Shown here: positions 490 through 44,914 of the stretch, piece by piece
Layout: each line of letters opens with the position of its first letter
Numbering within the stretch: the first letter of the stretch is position 1
From: Acetatifactor sp.
GTDB lineage: Bacteria > Bacillota > Clostridia > Lachnospirales > Lachnospiraceae
Assembly: GCA_024693365.1 (NCBI GenBank)
Contig: JAILLF010000044.1
Span: forward strand, 38,463-102,462
DNA: 64,000 bases
Reading direction: 5' to 3'
Program-made: the position numbers and the translations under genes
The notes under the pieces: generated by a model
What the model saw: only the letters and a program-made list of their open reading frames with translations
Databases searched by the model: none
What the model was told of the DNA's origin: nothing

Positions 490-1875
490 TTACGGACGCC
501 CGGATGAATGTTCTTTTGAAAACTGATGGTAGGCATTTACCAGGGTTTGGTATCCTAGGGCTTTTAAGTCTTCATAGCGCGCATTGTACCTGGCTTTTGT
601 GTGTTTTCCGGTGAGCAAGGTGCGGATGCACTCCTGTGCGTAAAGGTCGATGACGTGGAGACTGTCCGTGACGGTGAGCGTCGGAAAATACCAATAGCTC
701 CAGGAGAGATCGTTTTCCGCGGGACTTTCTAAGAGCTTGCGGTGAAAAGTGCGGATAAAAGCCTTAGCCGGCTTTTCACTCAATAGGTCATTTCGTTTTT
801 GCCAGCGTTGCAGGGCCCTCACCTTGCGGCGCATTTTTTTCTTGATCTTTTGGACGGAGACGGGCGATACGTCCACCTGACCGTCCCGCACAAAAAAACC
901 TAGGAAGAGAAAGCCTTCTTCCGGGGTGCGAAACTCTTCCTTCGCCGGATTGACGGCGAGCCCTTTCTGCGAAAGAAAACTTCGAATTGCATCGGCATGG
1001 CATCGGACTTCTTCCATGGAATCCCCGAAGACGATGACGTCATCGCTGTAACGGGCATAGGGAATACCCTGATCAAAAAAGAACTGATCCATGTCGCGAA
1101 GGTACAGGTTTGCGTAAAAGCAAGCCAGCGGCGTGCCTGCCATGATGCCTTTTTGTTCCCGGATCAGATTGCTTTCAGGTGACGGGCCGCCCGTCACGAA
1201 GGGCTCCGTCAGGAGGGACTTTAAGAAGAAAAACAGTGACGGATCGTCCATTGTCACGGCTTCCAGCTCCGGAAGGAGTCTTTCGATGGGAATGGAATTA
1301 AAGTAATTGCTGATGTCGACTTTATAGGAATACTTTCGTTGCAAGTCCGGAATTTGATGAAGCCGTCGGATGGCATCCTTGGCACTTTTGTTTGGACGAA
1401 ACGAAAACAGGTTGTCGCTAAACAGTCCGTCATACTTTCGGAGAAGCAGATAGGTCAAAAGCTTTAGAACGAGGTTCTCGGCCTCAGGATACGTATAAAC
1501 CACGCGCTTTTTCCGGGAGCTTTGCTTACTGATGACGGACTTCCGGGGCAAGGGAAATTGGACGCCGGAAGCTTCTTCTTCCCCGGAGGCAGGAAATTGG
1601 ACGCCGGAAGCTTCTTCCCCGGAGGCAGGAAATTGGACGCCGGAAGCTTCTTCCCCGGAGGCAGGAAATTGGACGCCGGAAGTAGGGCATTCTTCCGCGG
1701 AAGCCGTCTGTTGGGAAGTGATTTGCCAGATTTCCTCGCAGACGGGCAGGTACCCTTGCACTTCAATAAACTCCCGCAGGCTCTGGGCGGCAGCCCCTTG
1801 GCAGGCGAGAGACGTCTTATATGCATAAAATTTTTCCCAGACTTCCTTCTGGGAGAGACTGTCCAGTAAAGACAT
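490..1875 (-). CDS. Reverse transcriptase (RNA-directed DNA polymerase), orphan, subgroup undetermined
   Basis: RT motifs KVDISNYFNSI, KGIMAGTPLACFYANLYL, YARYSDDVIVFG, GFLFLGF; likely start MSLLDSLSQKEVW; linker carries ASGVQFPASGEE repeats. Confidence 0.85.
   Translation of the reverse strand: MSLLDSLSQKEVWEKFYAYKTSLACQGAAAQSLREFIEVQGYLPVCEEIWQITSQQTASAEECPTSGVQFPASGEEASGVQFPASGEEASGVQFPASGEEEASGVQFPLPRKSVISKQSSRKKRVVYTYPEAENLVLKLLTYLLLRKYDGLFSDNLFSFRPNKSAKDAIRRLHQIPDLQRKYSYKVDISNYFNSIPIERLLPELEAVTMDDPSLFFFLKSLLTEPFVTGGPSPESNLIREQKGIMAGTPLACFYANLYLRDMDQFFFDQGIPYARYSDDVIVFGDSMEEVRCHADAIRSFLSQKGLAVNPAKEEFRTPEEGFLFLGFFVRDGQVDVSPVSVQKIKKKMRRKVRALQRWQKRNDLLSEKPAKAFIRTFHRKLLESPAENDLSWSYWYFPTLTVTDSLHVIDLYAQECIRTLLTGKHTKARYNARYEDLKALGYQTLVNAYHQFSKEHSSGRP
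1551..1686. repeat. 36-bp in-frame tandem repeat (about 3.5 copies) inside the RT gene
   Basis: Unit gacgccggaagcttcttccccggaggcaggaaattg repeated; first copy has an extra ctt. Confidence 0.95.
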
Positions 1876-1964
1876 TTCGGGATCCTCGGATGGCGTTTGC
1901 CTAGTCACGCGTATGTGTGGCTTTGGATGGTTACATATAAAAAACAGGAAGAGAAAAGGGTTAA

Positions 1965-2039
1965 AATTCAAGGAAATTCCTTGAATTCTACGGGATCGTA
2001 CGTGAAACGGCTGCCTGCGAAACCATGGATTGTTTCACG
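1965..2039 (-). other. Structured leader upstream of the RT (candidate ncRNA/UTR)
   Basis: Perfect 10-bp stem AATTCAAGGA-aat-TCCTTGAATT (1965-1987) and 8-bp stem CGTGAAAC...GTTTCACG (2001-2039) in the 238-nt gap between 2114 and the RT start at 1875. Confidence 0.4.
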
Positions 2040-2113
2040 CCGGACCCACCACAGGCGCTAAGCGTTCTCTTCCTGTTTTTTGGCGTTGATCGTATGTAGT
2101 TACTTAGTTGCGA

Positions 2114-8623: not shown

Positions 8624-9655
8624 GTGAAAAGAAAAGGGTTATTTTGGAAAATGAAGAAATTTGCGTTGCTGGCGTGCCTTTGTGCGGTTCTCTCGGCATG
8701 TTCGGATGACGTGGAAACGATGGAAGGATTTCCCTCAGGAGTACCGATCGAATCACAGGAGGCGGTGGAGGCAGGAAATCCGGAGGAAAGCGTCATAAAC
8801 GCGGGAGATTTGGAACTGGAATTCTGGGCGACGGAGGAGAGCAACACGGAGGAAAGCGTTGTAAACGCGGGGGACTTGGAACCGGAATTCTGGGCAACGG
8901 AGGAGAGCAAAACCAGAGAGAGCGAAACCAGGGAGAGCAAAACCAAGGAGAGCGAAACCAGGGAGAGCGAAACCAAGGAGAGCGAAACCAGGGAGAATAA
9001 AGCGACGGATGCCTTGCGGACTGGCGGGAAGCTGATCGTGATCGATGCCGGGCATCAGAAGAAGGGAAACTCCGAGAAGGAACCGGACGGCCCGGGGTCG
9101 ACGACCATGAAGTCGAAGGTTTCCTACGGAACGGAGGGGCGCTTTACGGGTCTTGCAGAATACGAACTGACGCTGATCGTGGCGAAAAAGCTGCAAACGA
9201 TTTTGCTGGATCGGGGTTATGACGTGATCATGGTGCGGGAGACGCATGACGTGAATATCAGCAACAGTGAGCGCGCGGCCGTGGCCAATGACGCTAATGC
9301 CGATGCCTTTATCCGTATTCACGCAAACGGGTCTGAGGACAGCTCCGTAAATGGTGCGGAGACCATCTGTCAGACAAAGAAAAATCCTTACAATAGTGCC
9401 TTTTATCGGCAAAGCAGGGACCTGTCGGATGCCGTTCTGGACGGACTGTGTGCGGAGTGCGGTTGTAAGAAGCTTAGAGTCTGGGAGACGGATACCATGA
9501 GTGGCATCAACTGGTGCCAGGTTCCCGTGACCATCGTGGAGATGGGTTACATGTCCAATGAGAAGGAAGACAGGCTCATGGCCACGGAGGAGTACCAGGA
9601 TAAGTTGGCGAAGGGGATTGCAGACGGGATCGATGCATATTTTCAAGGTCAGTAA
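8624..9655 (+). CDS. N-acetylmuramoyl-L-alanine amidase (Amidase_3), lipoprotein with repetitive linker
   Basis: Lipobox [21 protein letters not shown], ...[20 protein letters not shown]...[12 protein letters not shown]. Confidence 0.9.
8780..8999 (+). repeat. Nested in-frame repeats in amidase linker (66-bp duplication plus 15-bp ESKTR-type repeats)
   Basis: [22 protein letters not shown] / [22 protein letters not shown] followed by [28 protein letters not shown]. Confidence 0.9.
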
Positions 9656-37886: not shown

Positions 37887-39728
37887 ATGGAAAATACGTT
37901 TGTGGTGAATATTATCCACAGGCCGGAGATGGTGCCGGAATATGCTGAAAAGGTGACGGGACAGGGGAAGGCCGAGGACATTGGAAGAAAGGCGCTTTTG
38001 ACGGAATCCCTGGACATCTTTAAGTTTCAGCAAAAGACAGCGCATGACAATGGGCTGAAGTGCACCATTCAGATGACCTATGCCTCTTTGTTTAACGAGG
38101 AGGCGATTGCGCTGGCCAAGGAGGATCATGAAAAATATGGGGATGAGATTGCGTTGACCCTTTTAGGGCTCCCCTGCAATGAATTCCGCGAGAAGTACAA
38201 GACAAAGGATTTTTGTATCTGGATGTTCTCCATGGAGGACAAGAAGAACATCGTTGACGACGTGTTTGGAAAGTTTTATGAGTGCTTTGGCTTTTATCCC
38301 GAGTCCACGGGATCTTATTACATGGACGCGGAGCTGACGAACTATATCAAGGAGAAGTATCCTACTGTCAAGTGTGCAGTGGCCACCTGCTGGGAGGAGG
38401 GACCGAAGGCATATCATACCACCAACAATTCCTGGTATACCCTGTTTGACGGCGGTCCATGGAACCCTTGGATCCCGTCGAAGCAAAACACGCATGCGCC
38501 TGCCGCGAACGAAGCCGAGGATTCCGGCATCGTGGCGATCCCGCATCTTTCGAGAGACCTTTTGGCGTGTTATGACGGTAACGGCTCCAATTTTGGAACG
38601 CATCCCCAGAACGTGCTAAGAGGCATGATTTATGACACGAAGACCTGGGAGTACCCCTATCTTTACAATCTGATCGACCAGTACCGGCATCTTGCGAAGT
38701 ACAATAACGGCTATTCCTACAACATGATGTTTGTGGGCCCTGGCTGGCTGAACAAGATGGGCCGCTGGGAACAGCCCTATGAGCTCTTGAAGAAATCCTA
38801 TGAGGACGGCATGCACTATTACGGCGAGCTGAAGAAAGAGGGAAAGCTGATTGATCTTACCATGGCGGAGTTTGCTGATTTTTACAGGGCAAACAAGACC
38901 TATACGGAGCCGGAGTGCGCGCTTTGGAAGGACATCCTCTATGGCTCGGACAAGCAGTTGTTCTGGTACGTGGATCCCTTTATGAGAGCCTGCGTGAACA
39001 TGGACCAGGGCGGCGCCATCGTTGACCTTAGGCCTTACGTTGCCAAGCTTAAGTGGGAGGTCGGTATTGGAACGCCGCACGTACAGGATGCTTCCTATCC
39101 CTTCCTGATCCAGGAAAAGTACAGGGCAGGATACTTCACGCATTATGCCGGAGAGGGCACGGTGCGCAGCGCGAAGATCTGCTGCGGCTCTGAGGAAGTG
39201 GACCTGTGTCTTTGCAGGACGCACGCAACCTTCTCTCAGGAAGGGAAGAACAGGATTCTGTCCTTGGACCCCGTGGACATAGAATTTGCCGGGGTGAGCG
39301 TAAAGCTCCAGACAAAGGTGATTTTCCCTGAGGGAGAGAGCAGGATCCAAATCAGCAGGGAAATCCTTGACGTCAGTGACCCTGCGGCAGAAATCAGCAT
39401 TAACGAATACATGGTAGCCTGCTACGGTACCACGGAGTACCCGGAGGACATGACTTCGATCAAGCTTTCCGTAGGTGACGGAGCAGACGCAAAAAAGATC
39501 GATTATGCCTACAAATGCAGGGAAGCTGCCGTGGAAGGAGCTAAGGTGGCGGAGGCCATTATCCCGCCCGTGCAGACAAAGGTGACGCTCACGACGGATG
39601 CGGATGACGCCACGAGCTATGTCAAGGAAGGCTATGCGTTTTCGCCGATGTTCACGCTGGGTATGACAAAGAAGATCAGAAAGGGAGAGGTGATAAGCAC
39701 GTGGCTCAATCTGGAAAAGGCAAACTAA
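37887..39728 (+). CDS. Large protein of unknown function in galactan operon; candidate glycosidase
   Basis: Continuous 613-aa ORF in operon; TAHDNGLKCTIQMTYASL, GFYPESTGSYYMD, YVAKLKWEVGIG; no signal peptide. Confidence 0.6.
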   Translation: MENTFVVNIIHRPEMVPEYAEKVTGQGKAEDIGRKALLTESLDIFKFQQKTAHDNGLKCTIQMTYASLFNEEAIALAKEDHEKYGDEIALTLLGLPCNEFREKYKTKDFCIWMFSMEDKKNIVDDVFGKFYECFGFYPESTGSYYMDAELTNYIKEKYPTVKCAVATCWEEGPKAYHTTNNSWYTLFDGGPWNPWIPSKQNTHAPAANEAEDSGIVAIPHLSRDLLACYDGNGSNFGTHPQNVLRGMIYDTKTWEYPYLYNLIDQYRHLAKYNNGYSYNMMFVGPGWLNKMGRWEQPYELLKKSYEDGMHYYGELKKEGKLIDLTMAEFADFYRANKTYTEPECALWKDILYGSDKQLFWYVDPFMRACVNMDQGGAIVDLRPYVAKLKWEVGIGTPHVQDASYPFLIQEKYRAGYFTHYAGEGTVRSAKICCGSEEVDLCLCRTHATFSQEGKNRILSLDPVDIEFAGVSVKLQTKVIFPEGESRIQISREILDVSDPAAEISINEYMVACYGTTEYPEDMTSIKLSVGDGADAKKIDYAYKCREAAVEGAKVAEAIIPPVQTKVTLTTDADDATSYVKEGYAFSPMFTLGMTKKIRKGEVISTWLNLEKAN

Positions 39729-39966: not shown

Positions 39967-41061
39967 TTGGATTTTATCAAAGGAATGGACGTCTCCACGC
40001 TTTTGGAAGAGGAGCGTTGCGGAGCAAAGTATTATGATCATGGCGTGCGAAAAGAGCTTTTGGATATCCTGAAAAGCTACGGTTGTAACTATGTAAGGCT
40101 TCGTCTTTGGAATGATCCTTATGCCGAGGACGGCAGGCCCTATGGCGCCGGAACCAATGACCTTGAGACGACCCTGGAGCTGGCAAAGCGCGCCCTGGAA
40201 AAGGGGATGGGTTTCCTTCTTGACTTTCATTACAGTGATTTCTGGGCGGATCCCGGAAAGCAAAACATTCCCAAGGCGTGGCGAGGGCATGATGCGGAAG
40301 AGCTTTCGAAGGACGTATGCGCCTACACAAAGGAAGTGTTGGAGATCCTACAAAAGGAAAACGCCATGCCAACCATGGTGCAGATCGGGAATGAGATCAC
40401 CAACGGCCTGCTCTGGCCTTATGGCAAAAAGCCCGAGTTTGACAACATTGCAAAGCTTGTCAGCGCCGGGATCAAGGCCGTGAGAGAGGTGGATGCAAGC
40501 ATTCCCGTGATGATCCATCTGGATAACGGCGGGAATAACGAAATATACGTCGAGTGGTTTGACAATTACGTGAAGAGGGGCCTGGACTTCGATATCATCG
40601 GGCTTTCCTATTACCCGTTCTGGCACGGAACGCTGGATGCGCTGTCCGTCAACATGAAGGACATGGCCCGCAGGTATGGCAAGAAGATCGTGGTTGCGGA
40701 AGTGTCCATGGGCTTTAGCACCGAGGATTACAGGCGCTATGAAGGGATCGACGAAAGTGAACTCAAAGGGATGGCAACCAAGGAAGAATTGACGAAATCC
40801 CTGGAGTATCCCATGACGCCCATGGGGCAGGCAGATTTCATGAAGGACGTGATCCGGCGGATCAAGGAAGTGCCGGGCGGCCTTGGATTCTTCTACTGGG
40901 AACCCGGCTGGATCCCCGTGCCTGGATGCGGCTGGGCAACGGAAGCAGCGCTGGAGTATACGGGAGAGCAGGGACCGGGAGGAAACGAGTGGGCAAACCA
41001 GGCGCTGTTCGACTATGAGGGCAATGCATTGCCCGCGCTTGACGTCATCAGAGATGCGTAA
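39967..41061 (+). CDS. Arabinogalactan endo-beta-1,4-galactanase, GH53, no signal peptide (cytoplasmic)
   Basis: FIKGMDVSTLLEEE, NYVRLRLWNDPY, LDFHYSDFWADPGKQ, VQIGNEITNG, GLSYYPFWHG, FYWEPGWIP. Confidence 0.93.
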   Translation: MDFIKGMDVSTLLEEERCGAKYYDHGVRKELLDILKSYGCNYVRLRLWNDPYAEDGRPYGAGTNDLETTLELAKRALEKGMGFLLDFHYSDFWADPGKQNIPKAWRGHDAEELSKDVCAYTKEVLEILQKENAMPTMVQIGNEITNGLLWPYGKKPEFDNIAKLVSAGIKAVREVDASIPVMIHLDNGGNNEIYVEWFDNYVKRGLDFDIIGLSYYPFWHGTLDALSVNMKDMARRYGKKIVVAEVSMGFSTEDYRRYEGIDESELKGMATKEELTKSLEYPMTPMGQADFMKDVIRRIKEVPGGLGFFYWEPGWIPVPGCGWATEAALEYTGEQGPGGNEWANQALFDYEGNALPALDVIRDA

Positions 41062-41132
41062 GCGACCTAGAGAGCGTTAAGAGCTTGACAGATTATCCCC
41101 AATTGTGATGATTCCATGGAATAACCTTGAGG

Positions 41133-41488
41133 CTACGGGCAAAAAAGGAAAAGTGGAAAAATGACCCGTAGGGAAAGGGAAAAGGCTACGGGCAAAAAGG
41201 CAAAAGTGAAAAAGGACCCGTAGGAAAATGGCCGAGGCTACGGGCAAAAAAGGAAAAGTGGAAAAAGGACCCGTAGGAAAATGGCCGAGGCTACGGGCAA
41301 AAAGGCAAAAGAAAGAAAATGACCCGTAGGAAAGCGAAAGAGGCTACGGGCAAAAAGGCAAAAGTGGAAAAATGACCCGTAGGGAAAGGGAAAAGGCTAC
41401 GGGCAGAAAGGCAAAAGAGGAAGAATGACCCGTAGGAGAAAGGAAAAGACTACGGGCGGAACGACAAAAAGCTAAATTTAACCCGTAA
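41133..41488. repeat. Seven-copy 52-53-bp tandem array, each unit an inverted repeat CTACGGG-N(24-25)-CCCGTAG
   Basis: CTACGGG at 41133, 41186, 41238, 41291, 41344, 41397, 41450; matching CCCGTAG at 41165, 41217, 41270, 41323, 41376, 41429 and degenerate CCCGTAA at 41482. Confidence 0.97.
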
Positions 41489-41533
41489 GATGGAGGAACA
41501 GGTTCAGTTTGGTAATAAAGTGAAACATATGAC

Positions 41534-43666
41534 GTGAAGGATGAGGACGGGGATTGCATGAAAAAGAGATTCATTACTTTGATGTTGCTGTTATCGATGG
41601 TCATGGCAGGATGTGCCGGGAAGGACGGGGACGCTACGGGTGCCACGGAGGTTCCGGGTCAGTCCAAAGAGGTGGACGTTCAGGAGACTTCGGAAGGGAA
41701 TTTAGCTTCGGATGAGAGTTCAGCGGCAGGGGAAGCGATTGCGGTAACGTGGAATGGCTGCGAGGTGGCGAAGCAGGTATACGAGGCAAAGCTGCCGACT
41801 GCGAAGGAGAAAGCGGATATCTACGTGGAGCCAATCGCGGGGCTGCCTGATGATTTTATCAGGGGCATGGACGTCTCCACGGTAATCGCGGAGGAAGAAA
41901 GCGGCGTTAAGTACCGAGACGAGAACGGTAACGTGCGGGACCTGTTTGAGATTCTTGCAGATGCCGGCGTGAATTATATCAGGGTCAGAGTGTGGAATCA
42001 TCCCTATGATGCCGACGGCAATGGATATGGCGGCGGAAACTGTGACATGGAAAAGGCGGCAGAGATCGGTCGCAGGGCGGCAGAGCATGGAATGAAGCTC
42101 TTGGTGGATTTCCATTACAGTGATTTCTGGGCGGATCCAAACAAGCAATATGCGCCGAAGGCTTGGGCCAGAAAGCGCATAGGCGATAAGGAGACCGCGA
42201 TCGCGAAGTTTACGGAGGAAGCTCTGTATGACATTCTGAATGCCGGTGCGGACGTGAGGATGGTCCAGATTGGCAACGAGATCAATAAGGGCGTCTGCGG
42301 AGCTTATGAAGAGGCTGACGTCATGCTGCTTTTATCATCCGCTTCCGAGGCCGTGAGGAGGGTTTCTTCGGTGACCGGCAGGGAAATGCAGGTGGCAGTA
42401 CATTACACTGCGGTAGATGACTCCGCGATGACCCTGAAAAGGGCAGAGATCCTGCAAACCTATGGCGTGGATTATGATATTTTTGGCATATCCTATTACA
42501 GCTACTGGCATGGCAGCTTTGAGAACATGCGCAACGTGCTGCGGGAGATCAGCTCCAAGTACGGAAAGAAGACTTGCATCATGGAGACTGCATATCCCTT
42601 TACCTCGGATGACGGTGACGCGAACGGAAACAGCGTGGGCAGCGGCGGCGTAGAAGGATATCCCGACAGCGTGCAGGCACAGGCGAAAAACTTCCGGGAC
42701 GTAGCTTCCTATGCCAACGAGGCAGGAGCACTCGGGGTATTCTACTGGGAAGGTGCCTGGGTGCCGGTAGGCTCGGAGCGTGAGAGCAACGAAAGGATTT
42801 GGGAGAAATACGGATCGGGCTGGGCTTCCAGCTATTCCGTTGATTATGATCCCCAGGATGCCGGTCAGTATTACGGCGGCTGCGCCTGGGACAATCAGGC
42901 CATGTTTGATTTCTCGGCGAAGGCCCTGCCTTCCCTGAACGTATTCAAGTGGCTGAAATACGGCACCGATGCGCCGCTTCAAGTGATGGAATTCAAGGAA
43001 GTGTATATCGAAAGCGGGATCGGCGTGCCTCTGGACATGCCAAAGACCGTTGACGTGTATTACAATGATCCTTCCGTCACGGATGGGATGGAGGTCACCT
43101 GGGATGCTGATTCGCTTGCGGCCGTGGACGTAAATGCCGCGGATACCTATGAGGTTAAGGGCCGGGCAGCAGACGGCAGCAGCATTACCGCCACCGTCAA
43201 GGTAATGAACGTCAACTACGTGAAAAATCCAGGCTTTGACGATGCGGACGTGAGCATGTGGACGGTGACCGATAACGGCGCCGGAAATACGACCGACGTG
43301 CAGAAAAAGGCAGCGGACGCCCTGTCCGGGGATAACGCGTTCCACTTCTATTCCACTTCCGCGATTGATTTCACCGTGGAGCAGGAGATCACGATTGTAG
43401 CGGGCGGAGAATATGCGGCAGTCGCAAACATTCAGGGCGGCGACGTGGGCAGATCTGCAGAGATTTACCTGTACGTGACCTGCGGTGACAAAACATACAA
43501 ATCCGATCCCGCAAAGCTCAGCGGCTGGAAGCAGTGGCAGAAGCTGAAGATCGACAGCGTGCCAGTCAAGGCCGGTGACGTTGTCAAGGTGGGCATGGCC
43601 GTAAAAGCTGCGGCAAAGGGCTGGGGAACCATCGATGATCTGGAGTTTTACGCCGTGGCGCAGTAG
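41534..43666 (+). CDS. Extracellular GH53 endo-beta-1,4-galactanase lipoprotein with Ig-like and C-terminal carbohydrate-binding-like domains
   Basis: Lipobox MVMAGCAG; FIRGMDVSTVIAEEESGVKY, VDFHYSDFWADPNKQ, MVQIGNEINKG; YNDPSVTDGMEVTWDADSLAAVDVNAADTYEVKG Ig-like segment. Confidence 0.93.
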   Translation: MKDEDGDCMKKRFITLMLLLSMVMAGCAGKDGDATGATEVPGQSKEVDVQETSEGNLASDESSAAGEAIAVTWNGCEVAKQVYEAKLPTAKEKADIYVEPIAGLPDDFIRGMDVSTVIAEEESGVKYRDENGNVRDLFEILADAGVNYIRVRVWNHPYDADGNGYGGGNCDMEKAAEIGRRAAEHGMKLLVDFHYSDFWADPNKQYAPKAWARKRIGDKETAIAKFTEEALYDILNAGADVRMVQIGNEINKGVCGAYEEADVMLLLSSASEAVRRVSSVTGREMQVAVHYTAVDDSAMTLKRAEILQTYGVDYDIFGISYYSYWHGSFENMRNVLREISSKYGKKTCIMETAYPFTSDDGDANGNSVGSGGVEGYPDSVQAQAKNFRDVASYANEAGALGVFYWEGAWVPVGSERESNERIWEKYGSGWASSYSVDYDPQDAGQYYGGCAWDNQAMFDFSAKALPSLNVFKWLKYGTDAPLQVMEFKEVYIESGIGVPLDMPKTVDVYYNDPSVTDGMEVTWDADSLAAVDVNAADTYEVKGRAADGSSITATVKVMNVNYVKNPGFDDADVSMWTVTDNGAGNTTDVQKKAADALSGDNAFHFYSTSAIDFTVEQEITIVAGGEYAAVANIQGGDVGRSAEIYLYVTCGDKTYKSDPAKLSGWKQWQKLKIDSVPVKAGDVVKVGMAVKAAAKGWGTIDDLEFYAVAQ

Positions 43667-43758: not shown

Positions 43759-43805
43759 CTTGACAATGTAAAGATGTGCGGTTATAATAACTTTACAATG
43801 TAAAG
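43759..43805 (+). promoter_or_regulatory. Sigma-A promoter with two 15-bp operator copies
   Basis: TTGACA 43760-43765, 17 bp, TATAAT 43783-43788; CTTGACAATGTAAAG (43759-43773) and perfect palindrome CTTTACAATGTAAAG (43791-43805). Confidence 0.82.
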
Positions 43806-43822: not shown

Positions 43823-44914
43823 TTGAAGAAGATGACAAAAGTGATCCTGATCGTTTGCGCATGCATGATAGCGGCCTTGGCACTGCTTTTTGTGGTCTGG
43901 GTGATCATGAGTCCCGGGACGATCCGGCAATATACGGAAGAAAAGAGCCTGTCCGAGAAATTTGTAATGGACGTAAACGGTGCTCCGAACGGATTCTTCA
44001 TCAACGGCAAAAACACGGACAACCCAGTGCTTCTGTTTGTGTCGAGCGGGCCTGGAACGGATGATTACATGCTCACGGACAAGTATGTTGACATGAATCT
44101 GGAGGAAGATTTTACCGTTGTGTACTGGGATTACCGCAACATGGGCATCGCTTATGACAAGTCTTATGACGTAACGCAGATCACGCTGGAAAACATTATG
44201 AAGGACGTGCAAACGGTCACGGAGTATCTGAAGGAAAGGTTTTCAAAGGAAAAAATCTATCTCATGGGATTCTCGGGAGGAACGACGATCGCGTTGAGAG
44301 CGGCCGCAGAGCACCCAGAGAACTATATTGCGCTGATCGACATGGCGCAGAGCGTGACCAATTCCTTTGAACGCGACACTTACATGTACAATTTCATGAA
44401 GAAGGTTTTCACGGTGCGGAGCGACAAGGCATCCCTGAAAAAGCTGGAGGCGTCAGTCAAACAGCTGGGAGACGGAAACGTAAAGTGCGACAGCTGGATC
44501 GATTACGTTGACCTGCTTCACCATGCAGGAGGCGGAACGATATTGAATCAAACGGAATTTGAGGGGATCGTTCTTCCCATATTGTTTTGCAAATGCTATA
44601 CTGTAAAGGAAAAGCTGAATTACGTGCCTGCGATGAAAAAATATCGCACGACGCCTTTTTATCAGGAGGTTTTGGGGAGGGAATTCGATTTCCGAAGTGA
44701 TATTCCGGAGCTCCGGATCCCAGCCTATTTTATCAGCGGCGAAACGGATTATAACTGCCCTTGGGAGCTGGTCCAAGACTATTGTGATAAGCTAAAGGCG
44801 CCGGACAAAGCATTTTATCTCGTTCCGGATTCGGCGCACAGCCCTCTCTGGGAAAACCCGGAGGTTACCTGCGCCATTATGAGGGAAATAAAGGAGAAGA
44901 CAACGGATGAGTGA
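43823..44914 (+). CDS. Alpha/beta hydrolase (membrane-anchored, aminopeptidase-like)
   Basis: N-terminal TM; LFVSSGPGTDDYML, YWDYRNMGIAYDKS, LMGFSGGTTIALRAA. Confidence 0.88.
   Translation: MKKMTKVILIVCACMIAALALLFVVWVIMSPGTIRQYTEEKSLSEKFVMDVNGAPNGFFINGKNTDNPVLLFVSSGPGTDDYMLTDKYVDMNLEEDFTVVYWDYRNMGIAYDKSYDVTQITLENIMKDVQTVTEYLKERFSKEKIYLMGFSGGTTIALRAAAEHPENYIALIDMAQSVTNSFERDTYMYNFMKKVFTVRSDKASLKKLEASVKQLGDGNVKCDSWIDYVDLLHHAGGGTILNQTEFEGIVLPILFCKCYTVKEKLNYVPAMKKYRTTPFYQEVLGREFDFRSDIPELRIPAYFISGETDYNCPWELVQDYCDKLKAPDKAFYLVPDSAHSPLWENPEVTCAIMREIKEKTTDE

What the first reader, a model, noticed from the sequence alone, without database searches (positions are those of the whole stretch)
41133..41488. 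Seven-copy tandem array of 53-bp hairpin units between two galactanase genes
Seven units at period 52-53 bp, each flanked by a strictly kept 7-bp stem CTACGGG/CCCGTAG around a 24-25-nt purine-rich loop, occupy the intergenic space between the GH53 genes. The loops vary (ggaaaagtggaaaaa, ggcaaaagaaagaaaa etc.) while six of seven stems are exact, and the last unit decays to CCCGTAA. There is no T-tract, so these are not ordinary terminators, and no plausible ORF crosses them. Possibilities include a repeated RNA element, a protein-binding array, an mRNA processing/stability element that sets the level of the downstream secreted enzyme, or a non-autonomous repeat.
Basis: seen in the sequence. Interest (0 to 1): 0.78.

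Follow-up and report, generated by a model that had tools for sequence, protein, structure and literature searches.

The report
Dispersed phased palindrome arrays in Lachnospiraceae
The seven-unit hairpin array between two galactan-degrading enzyme genes is one copy of a family of composite DNA repeats scattered between genes in this bacterium and its closest relatives, and its paired 7-letter arms and 53-letter spacing stay nearly fixed while the DNA between them changes, so something probably recognises them.

Summary
The array is real and exactly placed (41133-41488; steps 53,52,53,53,53,53), but it is not a local minisatellite and its last unit is not decay. The same genome carries 86 exact CTACGGG-N25-CCCGTAG units in about 15 arrays. 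Many have a BOX-like layout: conserved 5' module, variable number of 53-bp units, conserved terminal unit (TAGAATGACAAAAAGCTAAGTTTGA-CCCGTAA) and tail. Two sister species carry an array at the same GH53 site with diverged loops. Looser CTACGG/CCGTAG arrays at 52-54 bp occur in six other Lachnospiraceae genera. In 106 units the core arm bases vary at 0.3%, the rest at 16-23%, and indels are nearly absent. Arms show no convincing compensatory changes, so sequence and spacing, rather than pairing alone, seem constrained. The outermost C-G pair is kept in internal arms (98/99) but not at array ends (last arm ends in A in 13/14), making CCCGTAG-N14-CTACGGG the likely functional palindrome. Unrelated arm sequences in these genomes form arrays of the same period (52-54) or of 62-63 bp. 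Best reading: a BOX/BIME-like composite interspersed repeat of phased palindromic sites recognised by an unknown factor. A transcribed-hairpin role is the main rival. Function is untested.

The parts
39967..41061 (+). GH53 endo-galactanase-type gene without obvious signal peptide, upstream neighbour
   Evidence: Pfam PF07745 E=4.8e-122
41086..41132 (+). short, diverged 5' module (A'), homologous to the 5' module of the dispersed A-B(n)-C elements (GACAGRTTATCC...CATGGRATAACMT)
   Evidence: blastn to L017, L020, L022 upstream of their arrays; matches composite query positions 48-195 at 74%; conserved in sister species L085, L091
41133..41185 (+). unit 1: CTACGGG-25-CCCGTAG-14
41186..41237 (+). 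unit 2 (52 bp, loop 24)
41238..41290 (+). unit 3
41291..41343 (+). unit 4
41344..41396 (+). unit 5
41397..41449 (+). unit 6
41450..41488 (+). conserved terminal unit: CTACGGG-CGGAACGACAAAAAGCTAAATTTAA-CCCGTAA
   Evidence: same terminal unit type in 11 other arrays of the genome and in L090, L091, L093, L094, L098 of sister species
41489..41501 (+). remnant of the 3' module (C')
   Evidence: blastn homology with the C module of other arrays ends near 41501
41165..41192 (+). first of six inferred functional palindromes CCCGTAG-N14/15-CTACGGG (the others at 41217-41244, 41270-41297, 41323-41350, 41376-41403, 41429-41456)
   Evidence: outermost C-G pair kept only in arms flanking the 14-nt linker; folds as a 7-bp hairpin, -9.9 kcal/mol, 0 of 200 shuffles as stable
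41534..43666 (+). downstream GH53 + Big_4 protein; likely start ATG 41558, lipoprotein signal MKKRFITLMLLLSMVMAGC
   Evidence: Pfam PF07745 E=2.7e-109, PF07532; start and lipobox read from sequence

Best explanation
The array is one copy of a dispersed, non-autonomous composite repeat of the BOX/BIME type: a 5' module, n tandem 53-bp B units, a special last unit and a 3' module, present in this species and two sisters. Shown: composite layout, dispersal, copy-number and presence/absence differences, near-invariant arms and spacing, distinct end arms. Inferred: the working unit is the palindrome CCCGTAG-N14-CTACGGG (arm centres 21 bp apart), repeated every 53 bp with 32 bp between neighbouring palindromes, i.e. 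about 2, 3 and 5 turns of DNA. An unidentified dimeric factor recognises it by sequence, most likely as double-stranded DNA, and loads along one face of the helix. In the GH53 spacer this would set local topology or RNA-polymerase passage and so tune expression of the downstream lipoprotein galactanase relative to the upstream enzyme, in the way gyrase acts on BIME-2 arrays. No such factor or effect has been demonstrated.
For: 86 exact units genome-wide, none in 60 other genomes with the exact stem. Strong matches to the element in only two other species (G386, G426) among 138 genomes of the genus. 5' and 3' modules shared between loci. Same GH53 site occupied in two sisters, while the PLP-gene/dapF junction lacks an array in both sisters. 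Variability 0.003 in core arms against 0.165 and 0.225 outside; 97 of 99 steps between units are exactly 53 bp. No Watson-Crick double change among 106 units here and 50 units of other genera. End arms differ from internal arms: first arm T in 7/10 vs 1/99 internal; last arm A in 13/14 vs 1/99 internal (Fisher 4e-10 and 4e-18 with relatives pooled, copies not independent). The CTACGG core recurs at 52-54 bp in six further genera with unrelated loops. Unrelated arms in the same genomes form arrays at 52-54 or 62-63 bp.
Against: No binding protein, footprint or expression data. Preferred orientation along genes is not required of a DNA-binding site. The helical-turn reading is not secured: the periods form two tight classes, and a spacing of 9.5 bp fits them better than 10.5 (R 0.89 vs 0.76). 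Inter-arm distances differ between arm families although the period does not. Several arm families would need several factors. Part of the end-arm contrast is shared descent, and homogenisation between units may help keep lengths equal.
Confidence: 0.45

Rival explanations
1. Transcribed hairpin array: the purine-rich strand is part of the mRNA, and the hairpins (7-bp stem, 14-nt purine loop) block 3'-5' decay of the upstream cistron or attenuate the downstream one.
For: Sits between two co-directional genes without a terminator. Of 18 flanking genes I could verify around arrays, 16 lie on the purine-rich strand (manual tally). Sense RNA folds better than shuffles, z -4.95, 0 of 100. Different loci use different but always complementary arms.
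Against: No convincing compensatory changes in arms. Changes that keep a sense G-U pair are not more common than those that would keep it on the antisense strand (my count). Antisense folds about as well, z -4.5. A hairpin does not need loops of fixed length.
Confidence: 0.27
2. A non-autonomous transposable element (MITE) without host function; ends or arms are recognised by a transposase in trans.
For: Dispersed, shared end modules. Possible terminal inverted repeats CAACAAACGTGAAG / CAACAAACTGGAAG in L055 and ACAAACGTGAAGT / ACAAACTTGAAGT in L057. Whole-element fold closes 5' and 3' ends in L090. Array-free site in sisters.
Against: Terminal repeats significant in at most some copies (p 0.02-0.91). 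No IS sharing the ends appeared among the hits. No target duplication shown. Mobilisation alone does not explain why arms inside old, site-conserved arrays stay fixed while loops drift.
Confidence: 0.22
3. Neutral local minisatellite grown by replication slippage.
For: Copy number varies between sisters and loci; loops are homogenised within arrays.
Against: Dispersed genome-wide, kept in relatives, arms about 50-fold less variable than loops, indels nearly absent, unrelated arms with equal period.
Confidence: 0.03

Closest known systems
BOX elements of Streptococcus pneumoniae and S. suis (boxA-boxB(n)-boxC; PMC3049150)
   Same: Composite interspersed repeat: distinct 5' and 3' modules around a variable number of tandem internal units; intergenic; can fold as RNA; alternative end modules around the same internal unit, as in S. 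suis (boxA/C, boxE/F) and here (TTACGGG-type and ATCGYAG-type 5' ends).
   Different: Other lineage; internal unit is 53 bp with inverted 7-bp arms of near-invariant sequence and fixed spacing, with a specialised last unit; several unrelated arm families share the period. Sequence relation to pneumococcal BOX was not compared directly.
REP/BIME-2 of enterobacteria (PMC2817692, PMC3733652)
   Same: Regularly spaced palindromic units in alternating orientation, extragenic, in tandem clusters; BIME-2 binds DNA gyrase.
   Different: REPs have an unpaired GTAG tag at the foot of a short hairpin; here GTAG is inside the paired arm. No associated RAYT shown.
CRISPR arrays
   Same: Tandem, regular, palindromic parts.
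   Different: No unique spacers; both intervals are repeated; cas linkage not examined.
Intrinsic terminators / SPRITE repeats
   Same: Hairpins after a gene.
   Different: No T tract; inter-arm loop of 25 or 14 nt; many units in series.

Membership tests
BOX composite repeats | Distinct 5' and 3' modules around a variable number of tandem internal modules, at many intergenic sites | tested here: met
   units per array 2-15
BOX composite repeats | Sequence homology to pneumococcal boxA/boxB/boxC | not tested
   no direct alignment made; no Rfam family matches the array, which does not test this
BOX composite repeats | Terminal inverted repeats resembling a resident IS | tested here: inconclusive
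   weak inverted ends in 2 of 5 elements; no IS with the same ends among hits
REP/BIME (GTAG class) | Unpaired GTAG tetranucleotide at the foot of the hairpin | tested here: not met
   GTAG is the paired end of the CCCGTAG arm
REP/BIME (GTAG class) | Cognate RAYT (Y1) transposase flanked by the repeats | tested here: inconclusive
   one Y1_Tnp match in the genome, C9:113594-113851 (122 aa frame); its flanks were not compared with the arrays
REP/BIME (GTAG class) | Palindromic units in alternating orientation, regularly spaced, extragenic | tested here: met
REP/BIME (GTAG class) | Binding by DNA gyrase or IHF | not testable with these tools
   needs biochemistry
CRISPR | Identical repeats separated by unique spacers | tested here: not met
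   both intervals are repeated among units and across loci
Structured RNA conserved by base pairing | Compensatory double changes in stems | tested here: not met
   0 Watson-Crick alternatives in 106 units of this genome and 50 of other genera; in two sister-species arrays T-A occurs beside C-A and T-G at the outermost position only, without clear association
Intrinsic terminator | G+C-rich hairpin followed by T run | tested here: not met
   none in the array

The most novel reading that the evidence does not exclude
The genus carries a whole class of phased palindrome arrays: at least ten unrelated arm sequences, each in tandem at one of two set periods (52-54 or 62-63 bp), with different arm families expanded in different sister species (86 CTACGGG units here; 61 ACTTGCCTG units in G426 and 1 in G386). 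The common period, not the sequence, would be the functional feature: a modular, rapidly re-specified chromosome-organising or regulatory code read by arm-specific DNA-binding partners.
Probability: 0.25. Interest if true: 0.85.

Novelty: new variant of a known kind. Interest (0 to 1): 0.6.

Why it matters
Composite interspersed repeats are best described in pneumococci and Proteobacteria. A Lachnospiraceae system in which several unrelated arm sequences share the same array period, and in which arms and spacing are nearly frozen while loops drift, offers a clean way to ask whether such repeats are parasites, RNA elements or DNA-organising sites. The arrays also coincide with contig ends in these draft genomes, which matters for assembly quality.

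Tried and rejected
Local minisatellite: rejected by genome-wide copies and orthologous arrays. Terminator array: no T tract. Known Rfam RNA: none at E<=1. Phage origin: no match in the viral contigs with the three-arm pattern. The genome-contig scan also hit Actinomadura, Actinoallomurus, Thermoproteota and Bacteroidales; these differ in loops, and with about 7 chance hits expected by my own estimate I did not count them as family members, although three Bacteroidales contigs have a 52-bp spacing. Reversed-pattern hits GATGCCC..GGGCATC are scattered chance hits. TACCGCC arrays occur in no other sampled genus. Four-point survey hits at 54 bp (L233, a tRNA region), 72 bp (L234, duplicated terminator-like hairpin) and 79 bp (L177) were judged not to be arrays. 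The Rayleigh test for 10.5-bp phasing is significant (p about 5e-5) but included those three doubtful families, was devised after seeing the data, and is not specific for 10.5. Terminal inverted repeats: weak. A literature search for the arm sequences returned nothing relevant. G006's GCCCCG array (52 bp) was seen by TRF but missed by the later survey, whose filter drops two-letter arms.

Full report
OBSERVATION. The window holds six exact CTACGGG-N24/25-CCCGTAG units and a seventh ending in CCCGTAA, at 41133-41488, between a GH53 gene without signal peptide and a GH53 lipoprotein gene. Shuffles give none. Both neighbours and the purine-rich strand run in the same direction. There is no terminator-like site in the array and no Rfam match.

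DISPERSAL. The genome (3.70 Mb, 63 contigs) has 86 exact units on many contigs. Search with a composite element finds further end modules. I read arrays at C1, C8, C9, C20, C23, C29, C32, C46 (this window), C49 (218 kb and 240 kb, plus a single unit at 77 kb), C51, C58, C61, C62, a two-unit array at C43, and an isolated terminal unit at C12. Several contigs end at an array, as expected when short-read assembly breaks at repeats.

ANATOMY. Arrays at C8, C23, C32, C49:240k, C58 and C62 share a 5' module (AGCAACAAACGTGAAGT...GACAGGTTATCC...GGGATAACATARAAA), start with TTACGGG, and end with the same terminal unit CTACGGG-TAGAATGACAAAAAGCTAAGTTTGA-CCCGTAA followed by ATTGAAGAAACGAGATTCGTCTGTCGAGACAAAAGAGC and one or more CCAGTTTGTC modules. 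C1, C20 and C61 share another 5' junction that starts inside a unit (AATCGYAG). The window copy has diverged, short versions of both ends. This is the layout of BOX elements (PMC3049150). In L090 the predicted whole-element RNA fold closes its two ends (z -5.05), but inverted ends are statistically weak in most copies.

CONSTRAINT. In 106 full-length units of this genome, mean variability is 0.003 for the twelve core arm bases, 0.165 for the 25-base interval and 0.225 for the 14-base linker. Of 99 steps between successive units in 14 arrays, 97 are 53 bp, one is 52 (the window) and one is 54 (L017). Spacers rich in A runs would be expected to gain and lose bases, so fixed length suggests that spacing matters, although homogenisation between units could contribute. 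No alternative Watson-Crick pair appears at any arm position there, nor in 50 units of other genera. Arm changes are single-sided. The seventh, outermost pair is C-G in internal arms (98 of 99 on each side), but the first arm is T in 7 of 10 arrays and the last arm A in 13 of 14. Part of this contrast is common descent of the end modules, but the CCCGTAA end also appears in array types with different loops.

RELATIVES. In the genus, 2 of 137 other genomes (G386, G426) carry the element strongly. They correspond to the named Lachnospiraceae MAG records JAFZNO (buffalo rumen) and CAMKQH found by the pattern scan (correspondence inferred from identical loci). Both have an array at the same GH53 site. 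G386 has six units whose loops are 69% identical to the window's, while each array is 83-89% identical within itself: loops change in concert, arms do not. The C51 site behaves alike (10 vs 7 units; loops 68% between, 86-89% within). The C43 site has two units here and at least four in G426. The junction between a Cys/Met PLP-enzyme gene and dapF is about 100 bp without any array in both sisters, whereas here each of these genes borders an array on a different contig. That means insertion followed by rearrangement through arrays, or an assembly join error; I cannot separate these. A looser search (CTACGG..CCGTAG..CTACGG) over 397 genomes of the family has hits in six other genomes, where the arrays have different loops and steps of 52 or 53, and 54 in L074.

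OTHER ARM FAMILIES. A survey of 1.26 Mb of this genome finds hairpin arms in 20 of 67 intergenic tandem repeats and in 5 of 119 coding ones. An independent four-point test (arm, complement, arm, complement at equal steps) gives 20 clusters, shuffled control 0. Arms unrelated to CTACGGG recur at the same step: ACTTGCCTG 52, TACCGCC 53, TACCCA 52, AAGACCT 53, GCGTGTA 53, and GCCCCG 52 in another species of the genus. A second class steps at 62-63: GCAACAA, GATGCTTTTC, CAGCGGGAAATC, ACGGCGA, TACCTC. G426 has 61 exact ACTTGCCTG units, G386 one. One orthologous spacer holds GGCGGTA/TACCGCC units in G426 and CTACGGG units in G386 and here (L149, L083, L150). Two classes about one helical turn apart suggest, but do not prove, a double-helix constraint; a 9.5-bp spacing fits better than 10.5.

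MECHANISM. The conserved arm sequence, the lack of covariation and the fixed spacing fit sequence-specific recognition of phased palindromes in DNA better than a pairing-only RNA role. Orientation along genes (16 of 18 verified flanks, my tally) and location in gene spacers keep the RNA role alive. The effect on the downstream galactanase is inference only.

COMPARISON. It works like BOX and BIME-2 in layout. It is not a GTAG-class REP, because the tag is paired; not CRISPR; not a terminator. I file it as a new variant of composite interspersed repeats, with sequence kinship to pneumococcal BOX untested.

Noticed in passing
window 1953-2060 (-) and 490-1971 (-): RT-5 RNA (Rfam RF03026, 84.7 bits) directly upstream of a 493-aa reverse-transcriptase-like gene; a CTACGGG lies inside the RNA at 1988, probably by chance.
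   Followed up: no
window 1553-1682 and 8781-8996: Coding tandem repeats (36 bp in the N-terminal part of the reverse-transcriptase-like gene; 66 and 15 bp elsewhere).
   Followed up: no
L058 4100-5300 (minus strand; G000:C12): A terminal unit of the CTACGGG family (ATACGGG...CCCGTTAT) follows a different 62-bp hairpin array (GATGCTTTTC/GAAAAAGCATC), as if the inner units had been exchanged.
   Followed up: partly
L188 6207-6723 (same array as L059); ortholog L148: Array with an inner hairpin inside each 25-base interval (TGCCGAAACGGCA) in this genome, variants such as GCCAAAACGGC in the sister: loops differ, arms do not.
   Followed up: partly
L146, L147, L161 (G426, G386): GCAACAA/TTGTTGC hairpin arrays at 62-63 bp; GCAACA motifs also form the upstream border of the CTACGGG elements here.
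   Followed up: partly
L210 16778-17199 (G006, complete genome of the genus): Eight-unit, 52-bp GCCCCG/CGGGGC array, T-rich rather than purine-rich.
   Followed up: no
L073, L075, L076, L082 (Bacteroidales MAGs): Pairs of CCCGTAGGT..ACCTACGGG palindromes at a 52-bp step; chance, convergence or transfer not resolved.
   Followed up: no
L144, L145, L160: Another hairpin, GGGGACGGGGTT...AACCCCGTCCCC and variants, in spacers of the sister species.
   Followed up: no
L054, L061, L159, L022: A further dispersed element with ends GTTTGTCTACGCGGTG / CACCGCTTGTAGAAACGCGCAAC and a variable central hairpin, next to several arrays.
   Followed up: no
window 43760-43788: Perfect TTGACA-17-TATAAT promoter-like site upstream of the alpha/beta hydrolase gene at 43823.
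   Followed up: no
window 37887-39728: 613-aa protein next to the transporter and GH53 genes with no Pfam match even at E 0.1.
   Followed up: no
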